Part shown: positions 7,921 to 10,137 of the stretch, one piece after another | Layout of the letters: each line of letters opens with the position of its first letter | Position numbering within the stretch: position 1 is the stretch's first letter | From: a bacterium HR21 | Lineage (GTDB): Bacteria; Bacteroidota; Ignavibacteria; Kapaibacteriales; HRBIN21 | Reading direction: 5' to 3' | NCBI GenBank assembly: GCA_002898295.1 | Contig: BEHX01000004.1 | Coordinates: 62,001 to 126,000, forward strand | DNA length: 64,000 nt | Translations under genes and position numbers: made by a program | The notes under the pieces: generated by a model | The model's database searches: none | The model's input: the letters and a program-made list of their open reading frames with translations, nothing else | Told to the model about the DNA's origin: nothing

Positions 7921-7975
7921 CGATGCGGCTCCGCTCGTGGCAGAACAGGGCATCGTGGATTGGGATGCGCAGGTC

Positions 7976-8581
7976 ATGCACAGCGGTCACGGAATAGCAC
8001 TCGGTACGGTAGCAGACCTATGGCGCCCCAGCGACCGGGCGCTGGGGGTGCTCTACGATGCGCTGCTCATCGTCTCTGGCAGTGCTCTGACCGCCCTCCT
8101 GGCGCAGGGGGCTATACCTCTGCCCTGGACTCCCGTGCCAGTCACGGGGCAAACTCTGGCTGTTCTGCTGCTCGGGGCGCTACTGGGTGCCCGCCGTGCG
8201 GCGGCATGTATGGGGCTGTACCTAGTGGAGGGAGCCCTCGGGCTTCCCGTCTTCGCGCTGGGCACCGGTGGTGTTGCACGCCTTCTGGGTCCAACAGGTG
8301 GCTACCTCTGGGGCTTCGTTCCCGCCGCTTGGCTGATTGGCTGGCTCTCCGAACACGGTTGGGACCGACGTTTCTCCACCACTGTGGCAGCAATGCTGGC
8401 AGGCAATGCCCTCATCTACCTCTTTGGTCTGCCCTGGCTGGCGCTGTTTGTCGGCTGGGATGCGGTTCTCCGTGCTGGTCTCCTTCCCTTCGTGCCTGGA
8501 GACCTCTGCAAACTCCTCCTGGCTGCTCTCGTGCTGCCCAGTATCTGGCGCTGGCTTCGGCGCTTGCCGCCACGCCCATAG
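7976..8581 (+). CDS. bioY: Biotin transporter substrate-binding component BioY
   Basis: About 201 residues from the ATG at 7976; a GTG at 7937 in the same frame would add 13 residues, and the choice is uncertain. The protein has six hydrophobic segments and the BioY signatures: PWTPVPVTGQT near the first helices, GARRAAACMGLYLVEGALGLPVF, and GPTGGYLWGF. It is the S-component that captures biotin for an ECF transporter. No ECF ATPase or EcfT is nearby, so it either works alone or shares an energising module encoded elsewhere. It ends 53 bases from the convergent methyltransferase gene. Confidence 0.92.
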   Translation: MHSGHGIALGTVADLWRPSDRALGVLYDALLIVSGSALTALLAQGAIPLPWTPVPVTGQTLAVLLLGALLGARRAAACMGLYLVEGALGLPVFALGTGGVARLLGPTGGYLWGFVPAAWLIGWLSEHGWDRRFSTTVAAMLAGNALIYLFGLPWLALFVGWDAVLRAGLLPFVPGDLCKLLLAALVLPSIWRWLRRLPPRP

Positions 8582-8634: not shown

Positions 8635-9930
8635 TCAGCGAGTTCCCCACTGCATTCCCTCACTGTGCCGCCGTTCTGCCTCTACCTTGAGAAATCGCTC
8701 CCGGTAGCGATGCCAGACAGTTCGGTCAGCGTCCGCTAAGCCCATCGCAACCATCTTACGGTTGATGAAGAGGCGATTGCGCAAGTACAGGTACGCCCGT
8801 ATCGGTGCCCCCTCGTGCTCCGGTAGCCCCTCGCTGCGCAGGATCACCCGTTTGCCCACGACGAACTGTCGCAAGTACGCCATGGCATGCTCACGGCGCT
8901 CCGGAGGCACGGTGATGCCAAGTAGCTGGACAATCCATCCGTTCTCCAGCTGCACAGTGCGCTCATCCACGAGAGCGGTGACTCTGTAGATTGCCTCACT
9001 GCCGAGGCTTATCCGTTTGGGATCAGCAAGCGGTCTGGCGTCTTTCACCCTTGGCACGTAGTCTCCAGGTGGCTCAACAGGGGGCAAAGCCTGTACTCGG
9101 CGGACAATGCTGACCGGCGGTGTCTCCCGTTCCATACCGAGCCTCTGGCAAATGATGGGCACACACGCGGGCTGGATTTCGTAACCGATGGCATTGCGCC
9201 CCAGCTCCAGAGCAACCTTGACTGTTGTTCCGCTGCCGAGGAAGGGGTCCAAAACTGTCTCGCCGACGAAAGAGAACATGCGGATGAGCCGCCTGGGCAA
9301 TTCTTCCGGAAACATTGCCTCATGCATGACCTGCCGCTCACCAGCGAACTCCCAGTGCCCGCTGAAGAACTCCTTCCACTCCTCCCGGCTCAACCGGGAG
9401 GCTTGCCGCGCTGCCGGGGGCACCGGCTCCCGTACACTGCGCTGTCCAGGCTTTCTGAACAGCAGGACGAACTCGTAATCTACCTCTACGATGCCGTTCG
9501 GCGGATACGGGAATGACCCCATAACGACCGCACCGCCGGTCGGGCGCATCGTGGTCTTCTTGCGCCAGATGATAGCACCCATGTAGTCAAAGCCAAGCGT
9601 CTCGCATTGAGCAATGATTTCCGCATGGAGGGGAATGACCCTGTAGCGCCCATAGAGAGCGGCACGGGCAAAGTGGTCCCCGACGTTGATACAGAGCCGC
9701 CGTCCAGGCTTGAGCACACGCCAGCACTCACGCCAGACACGGCTCAAATCGCGCAAGTATTCGTGCAAGCTCTGCCCGTAGCCGATTTGCCCCTTCACAC
9801 CGTAGTCCTTGAGGTGCCAGTACGGTGGCGAGGTGACCACAAGGTGCACGCTCTCATCGGCAAGCTCCGCCATGGTACGGCTATCGGCAAGGTAGATGCG
9901 AGCCTCAGCGGGCATGGGCAGCGCCTGCAT
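8635..9930 (-). CDS. Beta-class DNA methyltransferase fused to a degenerate SNase-like domain
   Basis: 431 residues. Residues 1-300 are a DNA amino-methyltransferase: catalytic motif IV TSPPYW (about 33-38) precedes the SAM-binding motif DPFLGSGTT (about 228-236), the beta-class order. TSPPY favours N4-cytosine over N6-adenine. Residues about 315-425 align by eye with a staphylococcal-nuclease fold (VDERTVQLENG, QLLGITVPPE, AYLYLRNRLFINRKMVAMGLA). The calcium and catalytic positions appear replaced: R324 at SNase Asp21, Q335 at Arg35, T340 at Asp40. This domain is therefore probably a binding module. No restriction endonuclease lies nearby, so it looks like an orphan methyltransferase. A second start (MPAEARI, 9915) is possible. 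Confidence 0.85.
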   Translation of the reverse strand: MQALPMPAEARIYLADSRTMAELADESVHLVVTSPPYWHLKDYGVKGQIGYGQSLHEYLRDLSRVWRECWRVLKPGRRLCINVGDHFARAALYGRYRVIPLHAEIIAQCETLGFDYMGAIIWRKKTTMRPTGGAVVMGSFPYPPNGIVEVDYEFVLLFRKPGQRSVREPVPPAARQASRLSREEWKEFFSGHWEFAGERQVMHEAMFPEELPRRLIRMFSFVGETVLDPFLGSGTTVKVALELGRNAIGYEIQPACVPIICQRLGMERETPPVSIVRRVQALPPVEPPGDYVPRVKDARPLADPKRISLGSEAIYRVTALVDERTVQLENGWIVQLLGITVPPERREHAMAYLRQFVVGKRVILRSEGLPEHEGAPIRAYLYLRNRLFINRKMVAMGLADADRTVWHRYRERFLKVEAERRHSEGMQWGTR

Positions 9931-9970: not shown

Positions 9971-9982
9971 GAGGGCACGATG

Positions 9983-10056
9983 CGGGGCCGACGAGACTCG
10001 AACTCGCGTCCTCCTGCGTGACAGGCAGGCGCTCTAACCAGCTGAGCTACGGCCCC
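9983..10056 (-). tRNA. tRNA-Asp (GTC)
   Basis: 74 bases. The acceptor stem GGGGCCG/CGGCCCC is perfect, the discriminator is G, and the anticodon stem CCTGC/GCAGG frames the loop CTGTCAC with anticodon GTC. The T-arm has the usual GTTCGAGTC. No CCA is encoded. It follows tRNA-Ala by 8 bases in the same transcript. Confidence 0.95.
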
Positions 10057-10064
10057 GAAGACCG

Positions 10065-10137
10065 TGGACCCGAGGGGATTTGAACCCCTGACCTCGTGAA
10101 TGCCATTCACGCGCTCTCCCACCTGAGCTACGGGCCC
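10065..10137 (-). tRNA. tRNA-Ala (GGC)
   Basis: 73 bases. The acceptor stem GGGCCCG/CGGGTCC contains one G-T pair and the discriminator is A. The anticodon stem CGTGA/TCACG holds the loop ATGGCAT with anticodon GGC. The T-arm contains GTTCAAATC. No CCA is encoded. It is the first gene of the tRNA-Ala/tRNA-Asp transcript. Confidence 0.95.

What the first reader, a model, noticed from the sequence alone, without database searches (positions are those of the whole stretch)
8635..9930. DNA methyltransferase fused to an SNase-like domain whose catalytic residues are lost
Seen: motif IV TSPPYW and motif I DPFLGSGTT in residues 1-300, then an SNase-like pattern from residue 315 (VDERTVQLENG, QLLGITVPPE, RAYLYLRN, MVAMGLA). 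By eye the calcium and catalytic positions are R324, Q335 and T340 instead of Asp21, Arg35 and Asp40. Inference: a nucleic-acid-binding or protein-binding module guiding an orphan methyltransferase. I know of no commonly described methyltransferase-SNase fusion.
Basis: partly seen in the sequence, partly recalled or inferred. Interest (0 to 1): 0.6.

Follow-up and report, generated by a model that had tools for sequence, protein, structure and literature searches.

The report
CTAG-type methyltransferase with dead nuclease domain
This gene encodes a DNA-marking enzyme that carries a nuclease-shaped domain which has lost its cutting residues; hundreds of relatives share this design and most sit next to a MjaI-type restriction enzyme, so the gene here looks like a stand-alone survivor of a widespread restriction-modification system whose odd extra domain is kept by selection and probably grips DNA.

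Summary
The gene lies on the minus strand (9930 to 8635; 431 aa). Residues 1-268 are a beta-class amino-methyltransferase (Pfam N6_N4_Mtase, 1.6e-44). Residues ~310-420 have a staphylococcal-nuclease fold: Pfam SNase is sub-threshold for this protein alone, but 64 of 66 relatives match it (best 1.2e-9), and a confident AlphaFold model finds S. aureus nuclease as top PDB fold (E 1e-6, TM 0.67-0.75). The nuclease residues are lost in the whole family, not just here: none of 104 aligned members has Asp at the Asp40 position. The domain is basic and under purifying selection (dN/dS 0.05-0.18 in solitary pairs). The window gene has none, its genome has none, and a congener shows the empty site. So it is a horizontally acquired, solitary member of a MjaI-type restriction-modification family, probably making N4-methylcytosine at CTAG. 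The pseudo-nuclease domain most likely acts as a DNA-backbone clamp, as the unrelated C-terminal domain of CcrM does. I found no published description of this fusion in the papers searched.

The parts
8635..9930 (-). Solitary DNA methyltransferase with C-terminal SNase-like domain, 431 aa (P0001)
9127..9930 (-). Beta-class amino-methyltransferase core, residues 1-268: motif IV TSPPYW (33-38), motif I DPFLGSGTT (228-236)
   Evidence: Pfam N6_N4_Mtase 1.6e-44; closest solved structure TTHA0409, 2zie, E 5.5e-62; Foldseek 2zif E 1.5e-25
8668..9003 (-). SNase-fold domain without catalytic residues, about residues 310-421
7937..8581 (+). bioY-like gene; 53 bp from the end of the MTase gene, convergent; not part of the system, marks the insertion site. 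The name is my reading of the sequence; only the synteny was tested
9982..10056 (-). tRNA-Asp(gtc); the MTase gene lies just beyond its 3' end, where congeners have no MTase
10064..10137 (-). tRNA-Ala(ggc), conserved flank of the insertion site

Best explanation
The gene encodes a solitary beta-class cytosine-N4 methyltransferase from a widespread MjaI-type restriction-modification family (predicted target CTAG). It was acquired horizontally at a tRNA-Asp locus and is now without its restriction enzyme. Its C-terminal domain is a staphylococcal-nuclease fold that has lost the calcium-binding and catalytic residues throughout the family. I propose that it is kept as a basic DNA-backbone clamp serving the methyltransferase, binding flanking or non-target-strand DNA while the N-terminal core reads the site, flips and methylates the cytosine; this is how the unrelated C-terminal domain of the CcrM dimer works. 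Shown here: domain identity and fold, loss of catalytic residues, purifying selection, pairing with RE_MjaI genes, absence of the partner in this genome, and the empty site in a congener. Inferred: m4C chemistry (from motif IV TSPPY and relatives), CTAG specificity (from the partner family, homology to M.MthZI and partial motif avoidance), and the clamp role.
For: Domain: Pfam SNase in 64 of 66 members; PDB profile hits shown are all staphylococcal nuclease; Foldseek hits shown are all S. aureus nuclease, 297 matches at E <= 0.001. Loss of catalysis: position 340 (Asp40) is never Asp in 104 rows; position 324 (Asp21) is Asp in 8 and highly variable; position 376 (Arg87) is Arg in 5. Function retained: dN/dS of the domain 0.05-0.18 in solitary pairs L093/L098, L091/L108 and L020/L024; net charge mean +5.7, positive in 98% of members, +5 here. 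R-M origin: 74 of 111 loci found by ORF clustering with a ~200 aa gene beside the MTase, 72 of them adjacent on the same strand; five tested representatives are PF09568 RE_MjaI at 4e-12 to 2e-59; tblastn adds four more with near-full matches and one cut by the contig end (L006), and finds remnants in L004, L007, L008, L036 and L102. Solitary here: no RE_MjaI in the genome, no remnant in the window. Acquisition: 5 congeners lack the gene; in G298 bioY is directly followed by tRNA-Asp; nearest relatives are Chloroflexota and Armatimonadota. CTAG: pFZ1, the plasmid with the pair M.MthZI / MjaI-family REase, encodes a core 34% identical to this one; M.MthZI is a characterised 4mC CTAG MTase (PMC5867850). 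CTAG is the palindromic tetramer most depleted relative to a congener without the MTase in G003, G008 and G013. CcrM precedent: PMC6787082.
Against: CTAG is rare in many genomes regardless; genus g70 (0.06-0.08 with and 0.08-0.09 without) and the cross-genus comparisons of G137 and G125 do not support a link, and this genome's CTAG ratio (0.28) lies within the range of its congeners (0.00-0.54). The core is only 34% identical to M.MthZI, with differences around motif IV, so specificity could differ. No DNA-bound structure or assay exists for the domain; basic charge and the CcrM analogy are indirect. The domain could instead mediate dimerisation.
Confidence: 0.62

Rival explanations
1. The SNase-like domain is mainly a protein-protein module: it dimerises the methyltransferase or docks the cognate MjaI-type endonuclease.
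For: SNase-fold domains without catalytic residues serve as scaffolds in other proteins (own knowledge); most members are encoded next to the endonuclease.
Against: The domain is intact and under purifying selection in members with no endonuclease, so docking the endonuclease cannot be its only role. Dimerisation was not tested; in CcrM the dimer forms mainly through the MTase domains.
Confidence: 0.25
2. The domain is part of target recognition and sets or extends the sequence specificity.
For: It is basic and fused to the core in all full-length members examined.
Against: The beta-class core contains its own recognition region; M.MthZI and M.MjaI (303-364 aa) are too short to hold the domain and yet methylate CTAG. 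The domain is less conserved than the protein as a whole (mean column identity 40% against 56%).
Confidence: 0.15
3. The domain is still a nuclease with a rearranged active site, making the protein a one-gene restriction-modification enzyme.
For: The fold is kept and the Arg35 position is Arg or Lys in 79 of 104 members.
Against: Asp40 is absent from all 104 members and Asp21 and Arg87 are not conserved; here Arg35 is Gln. The invariant residues G338, Y380, N385, F388 and N390 are not the acidic set a metal site needs. A separate endonuclease gene does the cutting in most systems.
Confidence: 0.04

Closest known systems
MthZI / MjaI-type CTAG restriction-modification systems (M.MthZI on pFZ1; R in Pfam PF09568)
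   Same: Homologous beta-class core (34% identity over 297 columns) and the same endonuclease family as genetic partner in most relatives.
   Different: M.MthZI is 355 aa with a different, short C-terminus; no SNase-like domain is recognisable there. The window member has no endonuclease.
TTHA0409 of Thermus thermophilus (PDB 2zie/2zif/2zig)
   Same: Closest solved core by sequence and fold.
   Different: 297 aa; lacks the C-terminal domain.
Orphan CTAG methyltransferase HVO_0794 of Haloferax volcanii
   Same: Solitary 4mC methyltransferase homologous to M.MthZI (PMC5867850).
   Different: About 364 aa (gene of 1095 bp), conserved across Halobacteria; the window gene is a patchy, horizontally acquired bacterial gene with the extra domain.
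CcrM (PDB 6pbd)
   Same: Beta-class core plus a C-terminal DNA-binding domain that grips the non-target strand (PMC6787082).
   Different: CcrM methylates adenine and its C-terminal domain resembles SAND/PWWP, not SNase.
Staphylococcal nuclease (PF00565)
   Same: Fold of the C-terminal domain.
   Different: Asp21, Asp40 and Arg87 not retained; no nuclease activity expected.

Membership tests
Beta-class amino-methyltransferase (N6_N4_Mtase, PF01555) | Pfam match over gathering score, motif IV before motif I | tested here: met
   153 bits against cut-off 26.7; TSPPYW at 33-38, DPFLGSGTT at 228-236
Beta-class amino-methyltransferase (N6_N4_Mtase, PF01555) | N4-cytosine rather than N6-adenine product | not testable with these tools
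   Predicted from S/T-S-P-P-Y motif IV and from M.MthZI; no assay
MjaI-type (CTAG) restriction-modification system | Adjacent RE_MjaI (PF09568) endonuclease gene | tested here: not met
   Absent from window and genome; present in about 70% of relatives. The gene is a relative of such MTases, not a complete system
MjaI-type (CTAG) restriction-modification system | Specificity for CTAG | tested here: inconclusive
   Avoidance supports it in G003, G008 and G013, not in g70, G137 or G125
Staphylococcal nuclease homologues (PF00565), fold | SNase fold | tested here: met
   Foldseek E 1e-6, TM 0.67/0.75; 64 of 66 relatives match the Pfam model at E <= 0.1; the window protein alone is below the gathering score
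Staphylococcal nuclease homologues (PF00565), active nuclease | Asp21, Arg35, Asp40, Glu43, Arg87 | tested here: not met
   R324, Q335, T340, P343, P376 here; no Asp at position 340 in any of 104 members

The most novel reading that the evidence does not exclude
A whole family of bacterial and archaeal DNA methyltransferases has recruited a dead staphylococcal-nuclease fold as a conserved DNA clamp. It would be a pseudo-nuclease kept for DNA modification in both complete restriction-modification systems and solitary enzymes, an arrangement not described in the literature I could search.
Probability: 0.5. Interest if true: 0.55.

Novelty: new variant of a known kind. Interest (0 to 1): 0.42.

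Why it matters
It would show how a nuclease fold was turned into a binding module in a DNA-modifying enzyme, parallel to catalytically dead nuclease folds in other proteins, and would give a second solution, after CcrM, to how beta-class methyltransferases hold the DNA strand that they do not methylate. Because restriction partners were lost repeatedly while the domain stayed under selection, the family is also a natural series for studying how restriction-modification systems become solitary methyltransferases. It tells annotators that the SNase-like match here does not mean a nuclease.

Tried and rejected
Pfam and NCBIfam on the single protein gave only a sub-threshold SNase hit, so family profile and structure were used instead. 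A shared-ORF neighbourhood survey at first listed 37 loci as lacking the endonuclease; tblastn showed that four of these have near-full matches missed by the ORF picker (L010, L033, L042, L058), that L006 is cut by the contig end and that five others keep fragments, so the first count was corrected. CTAG avoidance pooled over the fetched loci (0.20 with and 0.21 without endonuclease) was uninformative and was replaced by within-genus comparisons. Phage and plasmid collections gave no full-length relative with the SNase domain among the records listed. Four literature searches aimed at the fusion or at its closest structure found no description of the fusion; subscription journals and REBASE could not be searched. 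A still-active nuclease was considered and rejected on the residues.

Full report
OBSERVATION. The finding's coordinates hold one open reading frame of 431 codons on the minus strand, 9930 to 8635. Residues 1-268 are a beta-class amino-methyltransferase (Pfam N6_N4_Mtase, 153 bits, E 1.6e-44) with motif IV TSPPYW and motif I DPFLGSGTT in that order. The nearest solved structure is TTHA0409 (E 5.5e-62; Foldseek E 1.5e-25), which ends where the core ends.

C-TERMINAL DOMAIN. The single sequence gives only a weak SNase match (E 0.044, or 0.0049-0.0092 for the C-terminal part alone). The family settles it: of 66 diverse members, 64 match Pfam SNase at E <= 0.1, best 1.2e-9; the family profile retrieves staphylococcal nuclease chains from the PDB; and the predicted domain (mean pLDDT 89) has S. 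aureus nuclease as its best solved matches (E 1e-6, TM 0.67 by query and 0.75 by target).

CATALYTIC RESIDUES. In 104 aligned members the column of Asp40 (T340 here) holds Lys in 51, Arg in 11, Glu in 10 and never Asp among the residues counted. The column of Asp21 (R324) is highly variable, with Asp in 8. The column of Arg87 (P376) has Arg in 5. The column of Arg35 (Q335) keeps Arg or Lys in 79, Gln here. The loss is therefore family-wide and old, not a decay in this gene. Invariant residues of the domain are G338, Y380, N385, F388 and N390.

THE DOMAIN IS KEPT BY SELECTION. Pairs of close relatives give dN/dS of 0.05-0.18 for the domain in members without an endonuclease (L093/L098 0.05, L091/L108 0.11, L020/L024 0.18) and similar values in most others; L084/L085 (0.47) rests on very few changes. 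The domain carries a mean net charge of +5.7 over 118 residues, positive in 98% of members, as expected for a nucleic-acid-binding surface, though charge alone does not prove it.

FAMILY AND CONTEXT. They come from bacteria and archaea of many phyla. Clustering the neighbouring ORFs of 111 loci showed one dominant neighbour in 74 loci: a ~200 aa gene which in 72 cases touches or overlaps the end of the methyltransferase gene on the same strand, or starts within some tens of bases of it (in L023 it is on the opposite strand, in L047 1.8 kb away). Five tested representatives are PF09568, MjaI restriction endonuclease. A tblastn check added four loci with near-full matches and one cut by the contig end, and found remnants in L004, L007, L008, L036 and L102. 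On a tree of 99 members the states 'endonuclease present', 'absent' and 'fragment' need 15 changes, so loss, and perhaps regain, is recurrent. The window member has no such gene in the window or in its 95%-complete genome.

ARRIVAL IN THIS GENOME. Five other species of the genus lack the gene. In G298 the same bioY-like gene is followed directly by the same tRNA-Asp/tRNA-Ala pair and dehydrogenase-like gene, with no methyltransferase between them. The nearest relatives are in Chloroflexota and Armatimonadota, many of them from hot-spring samples to judge by their names (65-74% identity). Horizontal gain at the 3' side of tRNA-Asp is the simplest reading; no integrase or repeat was looked for.

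SPECIFICITY. The plasmid pFZ1 of Methanothermobacter carries a methyltransferase 34% identical to this core next to a gene annotated as MjaI family endonuclease. M.MthZI is a characterised 4mC CTAG enzyme, and M.MjaI and M.BfaI are its homologues (PMC5867850). As an independent test I compared palindromic tetramers in genomes with and without the system. CTAG is the most relatively depleted tetramer in G003 and G008 (0.03 and 0.09, against 0.25 in congener G050) and in G013 (0.10, against 0.21 in G034). It is not in g70, where genomes with and without the system are equally low, nor in the cross-genus comparisons of G137 and G125. CTAG is therefore likely but not shown.

MECHANISM. By analogy with CcrM, whose C-terminal domain holds the non-target strand in trans within a dimer (PMC6787082), I propose that the pseudo-nuclease domain is a DNA clamp. 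A role only in docking the endonuclease is argued against by its maintenance in solitary members; a role in choosing the site is argued against by shorter CTAG enzymes that lack it. Dimerisation remains open.

VERDICT. It is a new variant of a known kind, of moderate interest.

Noticed in passing
window and G000:C1 stretches: GGCC (observed/expected 0.07) and TTAA (0.04) are strongly avoided in this genome; congeners vary (GGCC 0.03-0.80, TTAA 0.54-0.94). This suggests other restriction systems with these targets, now or in the past.
   Followed up: no
L002 (G000:C1:327868-328602): A second methyltransferase of the same core family without the SNase-like domain, in this genome; relatives of it may occur in congeners G297 and G301.
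   Followed up: no
L004:4424-6362: In the L004 locus a second N6_N4_Mtase gene and a ~290 aa gene lie between the methyltransferase and a remnant of the MjaI-type endonuclease, as if another restriction system had been inserted into this one.
   Followed up: partly
L087:2723-3853 and L104:401-1504: Where the endonuclease is missing, two loci have a similar ~370 aa gene (looks like DUF262/GmrS-type by eye) in its place beside the methyltransferase.
   Followed up: no
L084, L085 (G008, G003): The genome search reports one in-frame TGA inside the methyltransferase match of both genomes, yet a 411-residue open frame is also listed; the TGA seems to lie near the end of the match.
   Followed up: no
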